A stretch of DNA of 64,000 bases, taken from positions 1 to 64,000 of the forward strand of contig WRLV01000001.1 of the NCBI GenBank assembly GCA_009777445.1, read 5' to 3'. The notes under the pieces were generated by a model that had not been told where the DNA came from, did no database searches, and saw only the letters and a list, made by a program, of their open reading frames with translations. The DNA comes from Oscillospiraceae bacterium. GTDB lineage: Bacteria; Bacillota; Clostridia; Oscillospirales; Ruminococcaceae. This document shows, piece by piece, positions 29,160-37,734 of this stretch; the first letter of the stretch is position 1; each line of letters begins with the position of its first letter. A program made the translations under genes and the position numbers.

Positions 29160-29293
29160 TTGACGAACAGTTGACGACAGTTGACAATTGACAGTTGAGA
29201 GTTGACAGTTTTTGTAGGGGACGGGCTTGCCCGTCCCGAAATTTGAAGAAAATATTTGACACACCCCTTAAAATGTGCTATACTATACAAAAA
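29160..29293 (+). repeat. Composite element: heptad array + TAGGGGACGGGCTTGCCCGTCCCGAAATTTG palindrome + promoter
   Basis: Near-identical to 41817-41940. Confidence 0.88.
29256..29284 (+). promoter_or_regulatory. Promoter within the composite element
   Basis: TTGACA-17 nt-TATACT. Confidence 0.75.
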
Positions 29294-29296
29294 GAG

Positions 29297-30060
29297 GTGA
29301 TTAAAATTTCAGCTCATGAACAAAAGCACGATGAAGGCTATAAGTCGTTGCTGTCAAAAAAAGAAAACTTTTTGCACTTTCTTAAAAAATACATAGCCGC
29401 CCCCTGGACAGCAGACATATCTATTAACGATATTGAAAAAATTGACAAGAGCTTTATTACGCGCGAGTACAGAAAAACAGACTCCGATTTGATTTACAAG
29501 CTTAACATGAACGGCTCTGAGGTCTATCTGTATGTGCAGTTAGAAATTACCGTGAATACACGCATAGCTACGAAATTTTCGGTGACAGCATTGTAGATTT
29601 TCGTTATCTGCTGTTTGACTTAAATCGCGCCGATGACGAAACAATCGCTTCTACACGCAAACTCTTAGATGCGGTATTTTCGCTTGATAAAGTAAACTCC
29701 GATGTTGATGATTATATTTTTCAAGCGTTAAATCAATTGTCAAAATGGAAACATTCATTAGGCGACAACGAAATAAACGAATTGTGGGGGTGGCTTCAAT
29801 ATGCCTATTTCAACGGAGAACCTCCGTTAGATTTAGAAGCAGTTTTAAAACAAATTTTAAAGAAAGGTAAGGTGAGCGGTATGACACATTCCGGCGAAAG
29901 ATGGAGAGATAAACAGATAAATATAGGTATTCAGATAGGTATGGAAAGAGGCATGGAAAAAGGCATGGAAAAAGGCAAACAAGAAGGCATACAAGAAACC
30001 ATTGAAAGGTTTAGACGGGGCGGCATGTCTGATGAGGAAATTAATAAGTTCTTGCATTAA
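29297..30060 (+). pseudogene. Degenerate Rpn-family PD-(D/E)XK nuclease/putative transposase
   Basis: N-terminal part ends at 29596; C-terminal part (YEIFGDSIVDFRYLLFDLNRADDETIASTRKLLDAVFSLDKV…KGKQEGIQETIERFRRGGMSDEEINKFLH) resumes in another frame from about 29569; the middle region appears missing. Confidence 0.75.
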
Positions 30061-30100: not shown

Positions 30101-31009
30101 ATGACAAGAAAAATTTTAGCACTATTTCTCACAATGGCGGTCGCATTAAGCTTGTTCGCAATTCCAACATCGGCACAAACAACATTAAGGCTCAACAGAA
30201 CAAGTGTCACCCTTGCAGAGGGCGGTTCGTTTCAGTTAAGAGTGCAAACAAATTCAAGAAATACTGTGCGTTGGGCTACAAGTGACAGTCGGATTGCGAG
30301 GGTCAACCAAAACGGGCAGGTTAGAGCAATAGCCGCAGGCAGAGCAACCATTGCCGCAAGGGTTGACGGTGTTACCGTGAGATGTCAAGTGACAGTCAGA
30401 AAAGCGACTTCAACATCAGAATCCACCGTTAAAAAAGGCGATTCCCTTCAATTTGGTGGCTATACATGGAAAGTGCTTGAAGTAAAAGACGGCAAAGCGT
30501 TAATTATCAGCGAAAAAATTATAGAAAGCCGCCCCTACTCTTACATAACAAATGTATGGATAGTAACATGGGAAAACAGCGATTTGCGAGCCTATCTAAA
30601 CGGCGAATTTTATAACAGCTTTAAATCAACGCACAAGTCGAGAATTTCAACCACGACAGTAAAAAACAATGATAATCAATGGTACGGCACGCCCGGCGGC
30701 GCGGACACACAGGACAAAATATTTTTACTTAGCCTTGAAGAAGTAGTAAAATATTTCGGCGACAGCGGCAAGCTCAAAAACAGACCGGCAAATGATGTTC
30801 ATGTTTTTAGAGATGAATTTAATGATAAGAGAAATGTCGGTAGATGGTGGTGGCTTCGGTCGCCCGGCAACCGTAGCAACTATGCCGCCTATGTCGGGCG
30901 CGATGGCACTGTCTTTGTCAACGGCGAAGATGTCAGCGGCATGGTTGTATGTGACGGCGACATCGATGATGACAGTGGCGTTCGTCCCGCTTTGTGGCTG
31001 AATCTTTAA
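30101..31009 (+). CDS. Secreted BIG2 (Ig-like group 2) + DUF6273-like protein
   Basis: Signal peptide; LNRTSVTLAEGGSFQLRVQTNSRNTVRWATSDSRIARVNQNGQVRAIAAGRATIAAR; WWWLRSPG…GVRPALWLNL. Confidence 0.85.
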   Translation: MTRKILALFLTMAVALSLFAIPTSAQTTLRLNRTSVTLAEGGSFQLRVQTNSRNTVRWATSDSRIARVNQNGQVRAIAAGRATIAARVDGVTVRCQVTVRKATSTSESTVKKGDSLQFGGYTWKVLEVKDGKALIISEKIIESRPYSYITNVWIVTWENSDLRAYLNGEFYNSFKSTHKSRISTTTVKNNDNQWYGTPGGADTQDKIFLLSLEEVVKYFGDSGKLKNRPANDVHVFRDEFNDKRNVGRWWWLRSPGNRSNYAAYVGRDGTVFVNGEDVSGMVVCDGDIDDDSGVRPALWLNL

Positions 31010-31033: not shown

Positions 31034-31075
31034 AAAAACCGCTTAAACAACAAGTTTAAGCGGTTTTATTTTTAA
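31034..31075 (+). terminator. Rho-independent terminator
   Basis: AAACCGCTTAAAC-AACAA-GTTTAAGCGGTTTTATTTTT. Confidence 0.85.
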
Positions 31076-31077
31076 AG

Positions 31078-31106
31078 TGTGAGGTTTTCTCCCCTCGTTC
31101 GTATAA
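31078..31106 (+). promoter_or_regulatory. Candidate ECF sigma promoter upstream of the tasA-like gene
   Basis: TGTGAGGTTTTCTCC-N7-CGTATAA, identical architecture to 36012-36040. Confidence 0.8.
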
Positions 31107-31185
31107 CCAAGTAAGAGAGCAAAACAAAGCTCAAAAAAATTATAGTGTATGCGAAAGCGCATACAAGAAAGAATGAGGTATTATC

Positions 31186-31731
31186 ATGAAAAAGTCAAAC
31201 AAAAAATTAGTTTCGGTTCTTTTGGTTTTCGCATTAGTGTTCATCTCGGGCGGCGTATACGCGGCAACAAGTGGAGTTTTAGCCTTCAAAGGCGTTGCTA
31301 ACTTGAACGAAGCAGCCATAGTCAATGATTTAATGCTTGAGTTGCACGACTCAAAAACCCAACCGAACGCAATCTCAAATGACGGATTATCCACCGGAAC
31401 AATGAGCATCACCCCCGACCGCCAAACCGCCGACATCGTTGTAAACCTTGATAAACCCGGCTCAGAAGTATTCTTCACATTCGACGTAAAAAACACAGGA
31501 ACCCTTGACGCTTATCTCTTTGAATTTAAAACAAACAGCAAAACCCACAACGATTTAAACGCAGTTCTCGAATTTACCGGCAGTTATAAAAATTTAGAAG
31601 ATATGGTAATAAACACAGGCAACGATGTTAGAGACCTTACATTCGGGATTAAATGGAAAGAAGGAGCCGAAGGCTTTGCAGGCGAACAAGTCAACTTCCA
31701 AGTCTCAATCGCATACATCGAAAATCCCTAA
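31186..31731 (+). CDS. TasA/camelysin-like secreted protein
   Basis: Signal peptide; SGVLAFKGVANLNEA…VFFTFDVKNTGTLDAYLFEF; SipW-like peptidase downstream. Confidence 0.6.
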   Translation: MKKSNKKLVSVLLVFALVFISGGVYAATSGVLAFKGVANLNEAAIVNDLMLELHDSKTQPNAISNDGLSTGTMSITPDRQTADIVVNLDKPGSEVFFTFDVKNTGTLDAYLFEFKTNSKTHNDLNAVLEFTGSYKNLEDMVINTGNDVRDLTFGIKWKEGAEGFAGEQVNFQVSIAYIENP

Positions 31732-31748
31732 TCCAAACATAATTCTAA

Positions 31749-31789
31749 ATCATGCTCGCTCTCTATAAGCGAGCATGATTTTTTATTTT
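31749..31789 (+). terminator. Rho-independent terminator after the tasA-like gene
   Basis: ATCATGCTCGCT-CTCTATA-AGCGAGCATGATTTTTTATTTTTT. Confidence 0.85.
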
Positions 31790-31810
31790 TTGAAAATTTT
31801 TATTTTAGGG

Positions 31811-31839
31811 TTGCAATTTGTCGGCGTATTTGTTATAAT
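31811..31839 (+). promoter_or_regulatory. Putative sigmaA promoter upstream of the sipW-like gene
   Basis: TTGCAA-17 nt-TATAAT. Confidence 0.65.
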
Positions 31840-31856
31840 AAATATTGGTGAAATAT

Positions 31857-33035
31857 ATGAAAATAAACAATAAAATCACAGCCAATATAACGGCGTTCAG
31901 CATATTAATAACCATTCAAGCGGTTTTATTATTTATTCCGGATGAGGCGGTTACGCGGTTTATTGCCTTTCGCCCATTGTTCTATCTGCTTGCTCTACTC
32001 ATATTCATGGTTTTGAGCGGCTTTGACTCTCGCGTTGTGCCAAATTCTTTAAAATCCACTTTGATTGCCGGTTGCGGTTTGGTCTTGTATGGAGCGGCAA
32101 TTCTGACGGAAGGTATTATTTTTGGGTTCGGAATTAATGCGGCGGCATCCGGTTTTTATGTTATTTTAAACAACCTTTGGCTTTACGGCACTATTGCATT
32201 GGTTACAGAAGTTTTAAGGTTTCGGATTATCAAAAGCGTAACGCTTGAAAACCGCGGCGAAACCGCCTGCGCTCTCGTTTTTATTTATTCTTTCCTACAG
32301 CTTGATACGTTGCGAGATTTTTTTGGCGAAATAAACTATAATGATTTTACCGAATATTTTTTTACCGCTATTTTCCCGGTGATTTTGCTTAATGCAGTGC
32401 TTTGTTATATGGCGTATGAAGGCTCATTGTGGTCGCTTTTTATTATACGGGGAGTCTATTCGCTGTTTCCTGTTTTATCGCCGTTTTTGCCTAATATGCA
32501 CAAAACCGTATGGGCATTTTTGAATTGCGGCATATTACTTGTTACTTTGATTTTTTATCACATACTCATGTCCGACCGCAGTAAACTTGCTCTCAGAAGA
32601 AACCGAATACGCGCAAAGCTTCAAAGCAAGTCAAAGTCTTTTTATGCTGTTATCGGCATTGTGTCTGTTCTTATAGCGGCGTTTGTGTTGAGAGTGTTTA
32701 CATATTTTCCGGTTGTGGTTCTGACAGGAAGTATGACGGGAACGCTTGACCGTAGCTCTGTTGTTTTTGTCGAAAAAATTGAACCTGAAGATGTGGCTTC
32801 TGTTATAATTGAGGGCGATATTATCTTGTTCAAGCAAAACAAAGTTGAAATAATGCACAGGGTAATAGATATTCAATACAAGACCGATGGTGAGCCGTTT
32901 TATATTACAAAAGGAGACTCTAATCGGGCCGCCGACCCATTCCCCGTTGAGCAAAATCAAGTATTAGGGGTAACTAAGGCGTACATTCCGTACTTAGGTT
33001 TCCCAATTGTAGTTATACAGTCGATGTTTAGTTAA
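31857..33035 (+). CDS. SipW-type signal peptidase I with polytopic N-terminal membrane domain
   Basis: VVVLTGSMTGTLDRSSVVFVEK (Ser), GDIILFKQNKVEIMHRV (His, ER-type), FYITKGDSNRAADPFPVEQNQVLG. Confidence 0.88.
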   Translation: MKINNKITANITAFSILITIQAVLLFIPDEAVTRFIAFRPLFYLLALLIFMVLSGFDSRVVPNSLKSTLIAGCGLVLYGAAILTEGIIFGFGINAAASGFYVILNNLWLYGTIALVTEVLRFRIIKSVTLENRGETACALVFIYSFLQLDTLRDFFGEINYNDFTEYFFTAIFPVILLNAVLCYMAYEGSLWSLFIIRGVYSLFPVLSPFLPNMHKTVWAFLNCGILLVTLIFYHILMSDRSKLALRRNRIRAKLQSKSKSFYAVIGIVSVLIAAFVLRVFTYFPVVVLTGSMTGTLDRSSVVFVEKIEPEDVASVIIEGDIILFKQNKVEIMHRVIDIQYKTDGEPFYITKGDSNRAADPFPVEQNQVLGVTKAYIPYLGFPIVVIQSMFS

Positions 33036-33041
33036 TAAGGG

Positions 33042-34097
33042 GTGTTATATATCAAGTCGAAAATATTTTATGGTTTTTTAATCTTTATTTGCCTGCAATT
33101 TATAATATGGACATCGGTTTATTTATTAGCGTTTAAGAAGCCTTCTTTGTTCAGCGCGCAGGGTAAAAACAACGTAAGCTATGAAGTCGTCTACCTCGAA
33201 AACCACATATTTGACGACAGTGTTCGCCCACAAGGCACGCATGATTTATTGTCATATACCGATTATATTGAAGTTAAAAACTCTTTTTCTGCTGATTTTA
33301 GTGAGAGGGCTGCTCTTTCGTATTCATATACCGCTAAAGAGAGATTTTTTATAAAGCATCAACAATCAGCCGATAATAACACCAACCCCGTGGTGTATGA
33401 AAAAGAGTTAATACTCTCGAATTTAAGCGGCAATATTGACAGCGTTGATAGCGTTTCGTGGAATGGAGAAAACCCGGAAGAACCGGGCGGCGTATATATC
33501 ATAAATTTTGACGAACACATTAGAATATACAGAGACTTTATAGGCGCGCACGAGGAGATGTTAGAAACACGGGATTTTTCTCTCGAAAGAAATGTCAGGT
33601 TCACTGCCGAAATTTTGGTTGACTTTACATATAAAATAGAGTCTAACGGCATGATGGAAATTATTACTCGTGGGGTGACATTCCCTATTTCGCTTGAAGT
33701 TTTTCTGCCCGAATTTTCAGGTGTGCAGGATTTTGATGTCTTAGTTGAAGTCGGCGAAAAAACTGAAAGCCCTACAACTATAGCATTGTTTGTGCTGATT
33801 TATGCGGTGAGTATTTTCGGCATTTGCCTTGGCTTAAAGAAACTTGTTTCAAGAAAGAACGACAAACAGTATGAAGTTGACATGCTCTTGAAAAAATATT
33901 CAGATGAAATTGTTAAATCCGAAATACGCCCGGATTTATCAGAGTATAAAGTGATTTTAGTGACAGAATTTAGAGAGCTTTTGAAAACTATATTAAGCGA
34001 GAACAATAACATTATTTATTACGGCGGTCAAGATAAGGCTTATTTCTACGTTTTATCTGACAAGCTTGCATATACGTATTGTATTGATATTATTTAA
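33042..34097 (+). CDS. DUF5305-like membrane-anchored protein
   Basis: TM–extracytoplasmic β-rich region–TM; position directly after the sipW-like gene. Confidence 0.6.
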   Translation: MLYIKSKIFYGFLIFICLQFIIWTSVYLLAFKKPSLFSAQGKNNVSYEVVYLENHIFDDSVRPQGTHDLLSYTDYIEVKNSFSADFSERAALSYSYTAKERFFIKHQQSADNNTNPVVYEKELILSNLSGNIDSVDSVSWNGENPEEPGGVYIINFDEHIRIYRDFIGAHEEMLETRDFSLERNVRFTAEILVDFTYKIESNGMMEIITRGVTFPISLEVFLPEFSGVQDFDVLVEVGEKTESPTTIALFVLIYAVSIFGICLGLKKLVSRKNDKQYEVDMLLKKYSDEIVKSEIRPDLSEYKVILVTEFRELLKTILSENNNIIYYGGQDKAYFYVLSDKLAYTYCIDII

Positions 34098-34125
34098 ACC
34101 CGGAATAACACGGGGGTGAGAAATT

Positions 34126-34878
34126 TTGAATAAATTGAATAAAAGGCTTACCGCTGTTTCAGTTTCAGCCGCGCTTTGGTTAATATATTTGATTTTATGT
34201 ATTCTTGGTTTCTCGGGGGCAGACACTATATTGGGTGTTGCTTTTTATACTCTTGTTGTGGTTGTAATTGTCTATATCAGCGTTATTGTTTTTAAATCTA
34301 TGCTCAAGAAAATTCAAGTTTCGAGTGCTGTTTTGCCGGGAATTTTGGCTCTGTGTTCATTCGCTATTTTTGAGGTTTTTTCTTTTTTGTATTTTTTTGT
34401 TTATAGGGGAAGCATAACCGATATAACCGTAAGTTATTACAGCCGTTGCTGTGCCACCGTGTTTTTAGCCGTTACATCTATGGCAATCATAGCTCCCCCC
34501 GAGAACCGAAAGAGTGGGTTTAATATTATTTACAACATGATTATGTCGGCAGTGGTAATCTCAGCTTTGTTGGCGGTAATCACTTTTGACACATGGTTTT
34601 TGTTTCTCTCTTTGTTGACAATGCTTTTGTTATGCGTTGTGCCTTCCGCGCGAATCTTGTTTGAGTCGTTTAAAACAGCGCGGTTTAAACCCTATCGGCT
34701 GTTTGCTTTTGCGGTAATATTTATAAGTGTGCTTGATGCGGTGGGTCGTATTTTTAAATTCTTTTACCATGCTCCTGTTGTTCTTGATGTAATTATTGCA
34801 TTGTCCGTGCCCGCATATATATTGTTGGGCTTGACGATATTGCGTTTTGGGAGGGTGGAAGTTGCCGAACATGAATGA
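34126..34878 (+). CDS. Polytopic membrane protein of unknown function
   Basis: Multiple hydrophobic segments; TTG start; stop overlaps the next ATG. Confidence 0.7.
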   Translation: MNKLNKRLTAVSVSAALWLIYLILCILGFSGADTILGVAFYTLVVVVIVYISVIVFKSMLKKIQVSSAVLPGILALCSFAIFEVFSFLYFFVYRGSITDITVSYYSRCCATVFLAVTSMAIIAPPENRKSGFNIIYNMIMSAVVISALLAVITFDTWFLFLSLLTMLLLCVVPSARILFESFKTARFKPYRLFAFAVIFISVLDAVGRIFKFFYHAPVVLDVIIALSVPAYILLGLTILRFGRVEVAEHE

Positions 34879-35542
34879 GATTTTATTTCAGTTTATCGGT
34901 ATGATTATAATAATGAATATCCCTTTGCTGTTTGTCGCGTTTATTCTCGGCGATTCGGACAGTAGGCGGATTGTCCTCTTCTTTTGTTGGGGGTGGTTTG
35001 CCGGGGCTTTGGCGTTTACCCTTAACAGCCTGATTAATTCCTCGTGGGAGCAATCTCACAGAATGACTCTCTCAATCGCGCCAATCGTAGAGGAAATCTG
35101 CAAAGGGCTTCCCCTGTTGTTCTTCTTGAATGAAAAGAAATACCCACACATTACAAAAGTAATTGTATATTGTGCCATGGTGAGTGGAATTGGTTTTTCC
35201 GTGCAAGAGACAATGTATTATTTCGACCCGTCTTTGGTGGACTTCAGTAATATAGCCGTGATTGCCGCGCGCTCGCTGACCACCGCGCTTATGCACGGCA
35301 TGACCACCGCCGTTATCGGAATAGGGCTTTTGTTCTTGAACAAGCAAAAGTTTATGCTTATCCCTTCTTTGTTCGCGCTGTTTTCACTTTCGACGAGTAT
35401 CCACGCAATTTTCAACCTGCTGTTGCAAACCAAATTCGCTATTTTTGCCATGCTTATGCCTATTTCGATGTTTATCGGCGGTTGGCTGTTCATAAAAAAT
35501 CACAAAGGAGATTCACACATTGAATTTAGAAAAAATATTTGA
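34871..35542 (+). CDS. PrsW-family intramembrane protease
   Basis: APIVEEICKGLPLLFF, SGIGFSVQETMYYF, RSLTTALMHGMTTAVIG, HAIFNLLL. Confidence 0.88.
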   Translation: MNEILFQFIGMIIIMNIPLLFVAFILGDSDSRRIVLFFCWGWFAGALAFTLNSLINSSWEQSHRMTLSIAPIVEEICKGLPLLFFLNEKKYPHITKVIVYCAMVSGIGFSVQETMYYFDPSLVDFSNIAVIAARSLTTALMHGMTTAVIGIGLLFLNKQKFMLIPSLFALFSLSTSIHAIFNLLLQTKFAIFAMLMPISMFIGGWLFIKNHKGDSHIEFRKNI

Positions 35543-36047
35543 TGAATATTACGAACGTATTTATAGGTTTACCCTTTTACGGGTTCGGAATGTGCATGAT
35601 GCCGAGGATATAACCTCAGATGTCTTTGTGAAGGTGGCACAAAACATTCATAAATATGATGAGGAAAAAGCCGCTCTTTCAACTTGGCTGTTTACAATAA
35701 CACTAAATTTAATTAGAGACCATTGTCGTGCCGCCAAGCGCGGTACGGTTGAATTAGAGTTCGCAGAAAACGTTGCCTCATCCGACAATATCGAGATGAG
35801 CGTTGAAGATGATGTTATGTCTGGGGAACGTGCAAAAGCGCTTTACGCCGCGCTGGAACAATTAGATGAACGACAAAAGAATATACTGCTTTTGCGATAT
35901 AAAAGCAATATGTCTAATCGGGAAATTGCCGACACCTTAGACATAAGCGAAAGTAATGTAGAGACTATTTTATACCGCGCAAGAAAAAAATTAAAAAAAT
36001 TGCTAAAACCCTGTGAGGTTTTCTCCGGTGCTCCGTATAATCTATAG
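35520..36047 (+). CDS. ECF RNA polymerase sigma factor (TTG start)
   Basis: FDEYYERIYRFTLLRVRNVHDAEDITSDVFVKV; LLLRYKSNMSNREIADTLDISESNVETILYRARKKLKKLL; AAAGGAG 9 nt before TTG. Confidence 0.93.
   Translation: MNLEKIFDEYYERIYRFTLLRVRNVHDAEDITSDVFVKVAQNIHKYDEEKAALSTWLFTITLNLIRDHCRAAKRGTVELEFAENVASSDNIEMSVEDDVMSGERAKALYAALEQLDERQKNILLLRYKSNMSNREIADTLDISESNVETILYRARKKLKKLLKPCEVFSGAPYNL
36012..36040 (+). promoter_or_regulatory. Candidate ECF autoregulatory promoter inside the 3' end of the sigma gene
   Basis: TGTGAGGTTTTCTCC-N7-CGTATAA; same as 31078-31106. Confidence 0.8.
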
Positions 36048-36083: not shown

Positions 36084-36725
36084 ATGAAAGAACATGATAA
36101 TTTACAAGAAATTTTCGATAGTGTAGAAATCACACCTAACGCCGCCGCAAAACAAAGGGCTAAAGAACGCATGTTGGCATGTGCGAGGGAAATTGCAAGT
36201 GAGAAAGAAAACGAAAATTTCATAAAAAATAACGAAGAAACTAAATCCAAAATAAAAATCGCCCCCCGTTTCGCGCTCAACCGCTATCATTTTCAGGGGG
36301 CGGCAGCAGCCGCGCTGATTGTTTGTGCAGTCTCTTTTGCAATGCCAATGTTAAACGCGACTCCTGAATTATTGCAAGGCTCGCTGTTCAAACAAATTGA
36401 AGAAATGCGAGAAATAAGCATAACGCTCAACCCTTCTGAAATTGAAGCAGGGCAGGAGAATATAACCTTTGAGGTTTACGGGTTGCCGAAAAATGAGCTT
36501 GAGCAAATTAAACCCGAACACATCTTTTTAGCCGGCTATCTCAGCAACTTTGCGGTGCAAAGCCTTGAAGTTGACAAAGACACGCTGATTATTACCGTGT
36601 CTTTGCGCGAAACGGAAAGCGGCGAATTCCCGACTTCATACAATAACGGCGTTATTATGATTATGCCTGAAACACTAAGCAACAACGAATTTTATTATTA
36701 CGGAGAGGTTTTGGTGAAATATTAG
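36084..36725 (+). CDS. Putative single-pass anti-sigma factor
   Basis: Cytoplasmic ~70 aa, one TM (AAAAALIVCAVSFAMPML), extracytoplasmic domain; immediately downstream of the ECF sigma gene. Confidence 0.65.
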   Translation: MKEHDNLQEIFDSVEITPNAAAKQRAKERMLACAREIASEKENENFIKNNEETKSKIKIAPRFALNRYHFQGAAAAALIVCAVSFAMPMLNATPELLQGSLFKQIEEMREISITLNPSEIEAGQENITFEVYGLPKNELEQIKPEHIFLAGYLSNFAVQSLEVDKDTLIITVSLRETESGEFPTSYNNGVIMIMPETLSNNEFYYYGEVLVKY

Positions 36726-36843: not shown

Positions 36844-37734
36844 TTGAGCAGTAGAATTATAAAGGCGATTTTGCCTGTTAAGAGCGATGTTGTATTCCGA
36901 CTCTTCTTTGCAGATGAGCGCGATATGGGTGACCTTACGAGGTTTTTGAAAGCTTTTTTACTATTGTCTGATGATGATTATGACGAGATTGAAATAGCTG
37001 ACCCTCATTTATTACGAGACTATGACGGCGATAAGTTGGCGATTATAGACGTGAAACTTCGTACCAAAAGCAAAAAGACAATCCACATAGAAATTCAGCT
37101 TAGAGTAACGCCCGAGCTTAAAGAGCGTGTGATTTATTACAGTTCAAAGCTCATAACAGAACAAATGGGCAGCGGTGATAATTATGACACGATTAAGAAA
37201 GTTATAAGCATAATAATTACGGAAGAAACGCTGATTGCTGATAGCCCGGAATATCATCATCGTTTCGTAATGTTCGACCAAAAATCGAATGTTGAGTTTT
37301 CTGATTTGTTGGAAATACATACGCTTGAGTTGAGCAAATTGCCGATTGATACGGACGGCACAGAGTTGTACGACTGGGCAAAGTTTATTAACGCCGAAAC
37401 GGAGGAGGAACTAACCATGATTGCTGAAAGAAATCCGCAGTTTCAACCGACTGTTGTCAGATTGCGTGAGTTGTCTGGCGATGAAAAGGCGCGTGATTTG
37501 TATGAACGCAGGGAAAAAGCACGGCGTGACCATAATATGTTTGTTAGAGGGGCTAAGCAAGAGGGGATTATTGAGGGGCGTAGAGAAGGGCGTAGAGAGG
37601 GGCGTGTTGAAGGGCGTGTTGAAGAGCGTTTTGAGATTGCGATGAGACTTCTTGAACGCGGCAGACCCATTGAAGAAATCATGGAAGATACCGGTTTAAC
37701 ACACAGAGAAATCCAACGCTTGCAACTGCAATAA
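36844..37734 (+). CDS. Rpn-family recombination-promoting nuclease/putative transposase (PD-(D/E)XK)
   Basis: PVKSDVVFRLFFADERD…LAIIDVKLRTKSKKTIHIEIQL; C-terminal (EGR)n tail. Confidence 0.88.
   Translation: MSSRIIKAILPVKSDVVFRLFFADERDMGDLTRFLKAFLLLSDDDYDEIEIADPHLLRDYDGDKLAIIDVKLRTKSKKTIHIEIQLRVTPELKERVIYYSSKLITEQMGSGDNYDTIKKVISIIITEETLIADSPEYHHRFVMFDQKSNVEFSDLLEIHTLELSKLPIDTDGTELYDWAKFINAETEEELTMIAERNPQFQPTVVRLRELSGDEKARDLYERREKARRDHNMFVRGAKQEGIIEGRREGRREGRVEGRVEERFEIAMRLLERGRPIEEIMEDTGLTHREIQRLQLQ

What the first reader, a model, noticed from the sequence alone, without database searches (positions are those of the whole stretch)
31078..36040. Duplicate 29-bp ECF-type promoter links a TasA-like gene to a sigma/anti-sigma operon
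TGTGAGGTTTTCTCC-CCTCGTT-CGTATAA (31078-31106) and TGTGAGGTTTTCTCC-GGTGCTC-CGTATAA (36012-36040) share 15 identical nt, a 7-nt unconserved spacer and an identical CGTATAA. The first lies ~80 nt before the tasA-like ATG. The second is embedded in the last codons of the ECF sigma gene, 44 nt before the putative anti-sigma ATG. Two conserved blocks at fixed spacing with a CGTA-type -10 is what ECF sigma recognition looks like. The local sigma factor plausibly controls both its anti-sigma and the secreted fibre-like protein.
Basis: partly seen in the sequence, partly recalled or inferred. Interest (0 to 1): 0.85.

Follow-up and report, generated by a model that had tools for sequence, protein, structure and literature searches.

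The report
ECF sigma promoters control TasA-like matrix genes
A gut bacterium carries a small regulatory circuit in which one stress-type sigma factor appears to recognise three near-identical switches, in front of a TasA-like fibre protein, of its own putative inhibitor, and of a large secreted protein elsewhere in the genome; the base in which these switches differ from textbook ones matches a change in the amino acid expected to touch that base.

Summary
The genome holds exactly three copies: before the TasA-like gene, in the last codons of the ECF sigma gene before a putative anti-sigma gene, and on another contig before a 905-aa secreted protein, whose homologue is the gene immediately upstream of tasA in another MAG. 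In 337 other genomes of the order the exact core (N11 or N12) occurs six times: five directly upstream of ECF sigma genes with an ET-x-x-YRAR recognition helix, the sixth beside an apparent remnant of one. Six of six such distinct relatives carry the motif, against none of about 51 other sigmas. The window sigma has the same helix although it branches outside that clade. Its Glu148 replaces the Lys that reads position -31 in B. subtilis SigW, where the promoter changes C to G. In the relatives the promoter precedes sigma; here it lies between sigma and anti-sigma, and tasA has its own copy. This suggests negative-feedback-biased control of a SipW/TasA-type operon, with PrsW as likely activator. 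Transcription is untested.

The parts
31035..31067 (+). terminator-like hairpin that closes the upstream DUF6273 gene, immediately before promoter P1
   Evidence: 14 pairs, T tail; total terminator-like count in the region (8) is near the shuffled mean (6.4)
31078..31106 (+). P1: ECF-type promoter, TGTGAGGTTTT-N11-CGTATAA
   Evidence: motif-helix association
31107..31185 (+). tasA leader with two hairpins and GAGG ribosome site; resembles the leader of the third target gene on contig C30
31186..31731 (+). TasA-like secreted protein, 181 aa with signal peptide
   Evidence: Peptidase_M73 E 0.0022, below cutoff; 3 of 4 orthologues hit, best 9.8e-5; profile hits AbpX 0.0024 and TasA 0.03
31747..31781 (+). 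terminator-like hairpin between tasA and sipW (14 pairs, T tail)
31811..31839 (+). candidate housekeeping promoter TTGCAA-17-TATAAT with TG before -10, for sipW to sigma
   Evidence: 10 of 12, joint best score in the region; the total count equals shuffles
31857..33035 (+). SipW-like signal peptidase with a long N-terminal membrane region (start 31857 ATG or 31845 TTG)
   Evidence: (S26; TIGR02228 78.8 bits, over cutoff)
33042..34097 (+). DUF5305-like membrane protein that follows SipW in all close relatives
   Evidence: (E 1.4e-5, 25.1 bits against cutoff 29)
34126..34878 (+). membrane protein of unknown family
34871..35542 (+). PrsW-family intramembrane protease; overlaps the genes on both sides
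   Evidence: PF13367 E 1.9e-22, 80.2 bits, cutoff 23.5
35520..36047 (+). ECF sigma factor, 175 aa; recognition helix SNVETILYRAR (E148, T149, R153)
   Evidence: aligns with SigW 5wuq, E 2e-16
36012..36040 (+). P2: second ECF-type promoter, encoded in sigma codons 165-174, beyond the sigma4 domain
36084..36725 (+). putative membrane-anchored anti-sigma factor, 213 aa, one hydrophobic stretch near residues 72-90
   Evidence: hydropathy; position after sigma; no family match

Best explanation
TGTGAGGTTTT-N11-CGTATAA is the promoter recognised by the ECF sigma factor encoded at 35520-36047. The sigma drives three transcription units: the TasA-like gene (P1), its own anti-sigma gene (P2, inside the 3' end of the sigma gene) and a 905-aa secreted protein on contig C30 (P3). 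SipW, DUF5305, the membrane protein, PrsW and sigma are probably made at a basal level from the sigmaA-like promoter at 31811-31839, with possible read-through from P1. Under resting conditions the membrane-anchored anti-sigma holds the sigma. An envelope or matrix signal leads to cleavage of the anti-sigma, with the neighbouring PrsW as the likely site-1 protease, and the free sigma switches on the fibre protein and more anti-sigma, giving homeostatic negative feedback. Shown here by sequence: the motif, its rarity, its three sites, and its association with the ET-x-x-YRAR sigma helix. Inferred: transcription from the sites, the anti-sigma function, PrsW cleavage and the feedback sign.
For: Exactly three core sites in the genome and a clean gap to background. 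In 337 other genomes of the order the exact core with N11 or N12 occurs 6 times; five sit just before ECF sigma genes with an ET-x-x-YRAR helix, and the sixth is followed by a frame with MDKGATAYKRF, read here as the start of a disrupted sigma of the same family. Six distinct relatives with that helix all have the motif (at most 1 mismatch) upstream, against 0 of about 51 other sigmas; with a looser code (Glu at that position plus RAR) Fisher p = 4e-7, not corrected for relatedness. The code was read from three loci and then held in four new ones. The window sigma has VETILYRAR yet lies outside that clade across a 100/100 branch. It aligns with SigW so that K170, T171, R175 become E148, T149, R153; PMC6713349 reports that these read -31, -34 and -35, and the promoter has G where SigW sites have C at -31. 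The P3 gene is homologous (38% over 887 columns) to the gene immediately upstream of tasA in MAG locus L047, and its leader resembles the tasA leader.
Against: No RNA data. The anti-sigma matches no known family. The closest tasA-sipW-DUF5305 loci (L047, L048, L050) lack the motif in the scanned regions and the adjacent PrsW-sigma-anti-sigma block, so linkage is not conserved. P1 and P3 share leader sequence, so they may be copies of one promoter and not two independent sites. The sigmaA-like promoter is no better in number than shuffles. The relatives' usual spacing is N12, here N11 (also in G016).
Confidence: 0.86

Rival explanations
1. The sites are promoters of another sigma or operators for a DNA-binding repressor or activator, not of the adjacent sigma.
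Against: The motif is tied to ECF sigma genes of one helix class in other genomes. Of the genome's eight region-2 sigma hits only this sigma has Glu-Thr at the -31/-34 reading positions. The core is not a palindrome.
Confidence: 0.07
2. Canonical mixed feedback: P1 transcripts read through the tasA terminator to PrsW and sigma, so the sigma also activates itself, and P2 only tops up the anti-sigma.
For: All genes lie on one strand and PrsW-sigma overlap; C. perfringens sipW-bsaA transcripts read through a terminator (PMC7395162); the mixed feedback of sigV is described as common (PMC8287880).
Against: A strong hairpin with T tail follows tasA and a good sigmaA-like promoter precedes sipW; there is no ECF motif just upstream of sigma (best 7 mismatches).
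Confidence: 0.35
3. The repeats are a copied DNA segment (duplication or mobile repeat) without a promoter role.
For: P1 and P3 share leader sequence as well as the motif.
Against: P2 shares only the two blocks, with a different spacer; the motif recurs before sigma genes in other families with unrelated spacers.
Confidence: 0.03

Closest known systems
Bacillus subtilis SigW/RsiW/PrsW and other ECF sigma-anti-sigma systems
   Same: ECF sigma (best PDB match SigW 5wuq), a following gene with one hydrophobic stretch, PrsW-family protease, bipartite promoter with T-rich run after -35 and CGTA -10
   Different: -35 has G at -31 where SigW has C, matching E148 for K170; promoter lies between sigma and anti-sigma and not before sigma; PrsW is encoded next to sigma
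B. subtilis SigV circuit (PMC8287880)
   Same: sigma drives its own anti-sigma
   Different: sigV promoter drives both genes (mixed feedback); here P2 can drive only the anti-sigma
B. subtilis tapA-sipW-tasA and C. perfringens sipW-bsaA matrix operons (PMC7395162)
   Same: fibre-type protein with a SipW-type signal peptidase; in C. perfringens a terminator next to the fibre gene
   Different: those are controlled by SinR/SlrR and by the BsaRS two-component system; here apparently by an ECF sigma
ECF sigmas with helix ET-x-x-YRAR in the same order (L025, L028, L152, L154, L158, L163)
   Same: same recognition helix and same TGTGAGGTTTT promoter
   Different: they belong to another branch; their promoter precedes sigma; no sipW or tasA homologue was found near the two examined at length (L044, 5.9 kb; L045, 12 kb)

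Membership tests
ECF sigma factor | sigma2 and sigma4 domains only, no sigma3 | tested here: met
   (PF04542, PF08281, TIGR02937 over cutoffs; 175 aa)
ECF promoter | two blocks at near-fixed spacing with CGT-type -10, linked to an ECF gene | tested here: met
ECF promoter | sigma-dependent transcription start 5-10 nt after -10 | not testable with these tools
   no RNA data
transmembrane anti-sigma factor | gene next to sigma, single membrane segment | tested here: met
   by hydropathy only
transmembrane anti-sigma factor | recognised anti-sigma domain | tested here: not met
   no match in Pfam or NCBIfam; hence only a putative anti-sigma
PrsW protease | PF13367 domain | tested here: met
   80.2 bits against cutoff 23.5
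TasA/CalY (Peptidase_M73) | family profile over cutoff | tested here: not met
   18.3 bits against 22.5; best E among orthologues 9.8e-5; profile against PDB reaches AbpX and TasA weakly; fold search of the model gave no match at E 0.001. Described as TasA-like only
SipW/ER-type signal peptidase | S26 domain with Ser and His catalytic residues | tested here: met
   invariant S292-M293 and H334; the catalytic roles are from general knowledge

The most novel reading that the evidence does not exclude
A change from the usual lysine or arginine to glutamate in the -35 reading helix arose at least twice in ECF sigma factors and each time went with G at -31 of the promoter, giving an orthogonal specificity class. 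In this lineage that sigma took over a SipW/TasA-type matrix operon and was wired so that it feeds back only on its inhibitor.
Probability: 0.45. Interest if true: 0.7.

Novelty: new variant of a known kind. Interest (0 to 1): 0.55.

Why it matters
The searches of the held library found no paper that puts a TasA/SipW-type matrix operon under its own adjacent ECF sigma. If right, it gives a third regulatory logic for such operons, next to SinR and two-component control. It also offers a checkable residue-to-base rule for ECF -35 recognition, supported across several families of one order, and a natural circuit in which the inhibitor, but apparently not the sigma, has a sigma-driven promoter.

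Tried and rejected
Looked for the motif and the PrsW-sigma-anti-sigma block at orthologous tasA-sipW-DUF5305 loci; neither was found. The closest sigma relatives in the genus and order are only about 30-37% identical, so true orthologues were not found. An anti-sigma homologue search gave only weak matches; the best (G063) is a different protein. Fold search with the TasA-like model gave no significant match. The structure model of the 905-aa protein is unusable (mean pLDDT 34), and it has no family, so its function stays open. No paper on an anti-sigma-only internal promoter surfaced with the terms used.

Full report
Observation. No shuffle of the window has a match at up to 3 mismatches, and the genome of 1.98 Mb in 91 contigs has only these two. 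The first ends 79 nt before the TasA-like ATG; the second is codons 165-174 of the sigma gene, beyond the sigma4 domain, and ends 43 nt before the anti-sigma ATG.

The real core and a third site. Dropping the CTCC letters shows a third exact site on another contig, C30:14897-14925, and a clean gap to background: three exact sites, none with 1-2 mismatches, four at 3 mismatches against five for the reversed control. Letting the spacing run from 9 to 13 and the -10 vary at two places still gives only these three. So the element is TGTGAGGTTTT-N11-CGTATAA.

What lies behind the third site. It precedes, by about 80 nt, a 905-aa secreted protein without a known family. A homologue (38% identity over 887 columns) is the gene directly upstream of tasA in a MAG whose TasA-like protein is 60% identical to this one. 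The leaders of tasA and of the C30 gene also match: hairpins with differing sequence and an almost identical GAAAGAAT..GAGGTATTATCATGAAAA around the ribosome site; at up to 3 mismatches the ungapped C30 version of that string occurs once in the genome (the tasA copy differs by a 2-nt gap). In the other MAG the upstream gene has no such motif and a sigmaA-like TTGACA-17-TAAAAT can be read before it. The two genes thus appear to belong together and share the promoter here.

Neighbourhood. Order on the + strand: TasA-like, SipW-like signal peptidase, DUF5305-like, a membrane protein, PrsW protease, ECF sigma, putative anti-sigma. A terminator-like hairpin ends the gene before P1, a second one follows tasA, and TTGCAA-17-TATAAT with an extended -10 precedes sipW (such matches are as common in shuffles, so this is only suggestive).

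Who reads the motif. Two distant sigma relatives carry the same motif just upstream of their sigma genes, and of about 30 relatives only these share the recognition helix ET-x-x-YRAR with the window sigma. That was then tested on new loci: four further sigmas with this helix all carry the motif at 66-86 nt before the start (L154 with one mismatch). Counting distinct loci, 6 of 6 with the helix have it and 0 of about 51 others do (L147 and L028 are the same locus). The Fisher value of 4e-7 uses a slightly looser code, counts that locus twice and ignores relatedness. The reverse test is as clear: in 337 other genomes of the order the exact core with N11-N12 occurs six times. Five precede sigmas with this helix; the sixth (G356) is followed by a reading frame with MDKGATAYKRF, which I read as the start of a disrupted sigma of that family. 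One search, which found none outside this genome, covered only spacings 10 and 11.

Independence and mechanism. The tree places the window sigma outside the clade of those relatives, across a 100/100 branch of length 1.7, so helix and promoter agree in two separate lineages; the relatives within the clade are not independent of each other. In SigW bound to DNA, K170, T171 and R175 read positions -31, -34 and -35 (PMC6713349). The alignment puts E148, T149 and R153 there. Aligning the T runs, SigW's TGAAACCTTT corresponds to TGTGAGGTTT, with G for C at -31. A glutamate facing the cytosine of the opposite strand is a sensible partner; this is inference.

Circuit. In the relatives the promoter precedes sigma, which gives the usual mixed feedback (compare PMC8287880). 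Here no such site precedes sigma (best 7 mismatches), one lies between sigma and anti-sigma, and one drives tasA. If read-through from tasA is low, the sigma feeds back only on its inhibitor. C. perfringens sipW-bsaA shows that read-through past such a terminator can occur (PMC7395162), so mixed feedback remains a live rival. PrsW next to sigma suggests regulated proteolysis of the anti-sigma, by analogy with RsiW (established knowledge of the SigW system); not tested.

Limits. There is no RNA. The anti-sigma is called so from position and one hydrophobic stretch only. TasA likeness is by weak profile similarity plus SipW linkage. The sigma block is absent next to the closest tasA-sipW loci, so the wiring is lineage-specific.

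Noticed in passing
L144:9827-10747 (contig C30, just after the 905-aa target gene): Gene for an EcoRV-type restriction endonuclease (PF09233, E 7.8e-87).
   Followed up: no
L145 (contig C11) 242-2058: Three copies of a roughly 320-nt intergenic repeat, each holding TTTGAGGTTTTGCCCTGTTTTTATTATAA; read on the other strand it contains a TTGACA-17-TATTAT-like sequence.
   Followed up: partly
L148-L151, L165 and others, upstream of sigma: A second helix class (NL-x-YRAK) goes with a different promoter, GTGAGACTTT-N13-CGACTAATA, in several relatives: perhaps a second specificity pair.
   Followed up: partly
L017:1994-2022: Another sigma (G044) has TGTAACGTTTC-N11-CGTATAAA right after its stop codon, again between sigma and the next gene.
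   Followed up: partly
window 36844-37734 and 29195-30060: An Rpn/PD-(D/E)XK transposase-like gene follows the anti-sigma; two reading frames before the DUF6273 gene look by eye like pieces of a similar gene.
   Followed up: no
window 30101-31009: Secreted protein with Big_2 and DUF6273 domains directly upstream of P1.
   Followed up: no
L037, L038 (genome G060): One genome of the order holds two copies of the sipW-DUF5305 pair without a sigma factor found beside them.
   Followed up: partly
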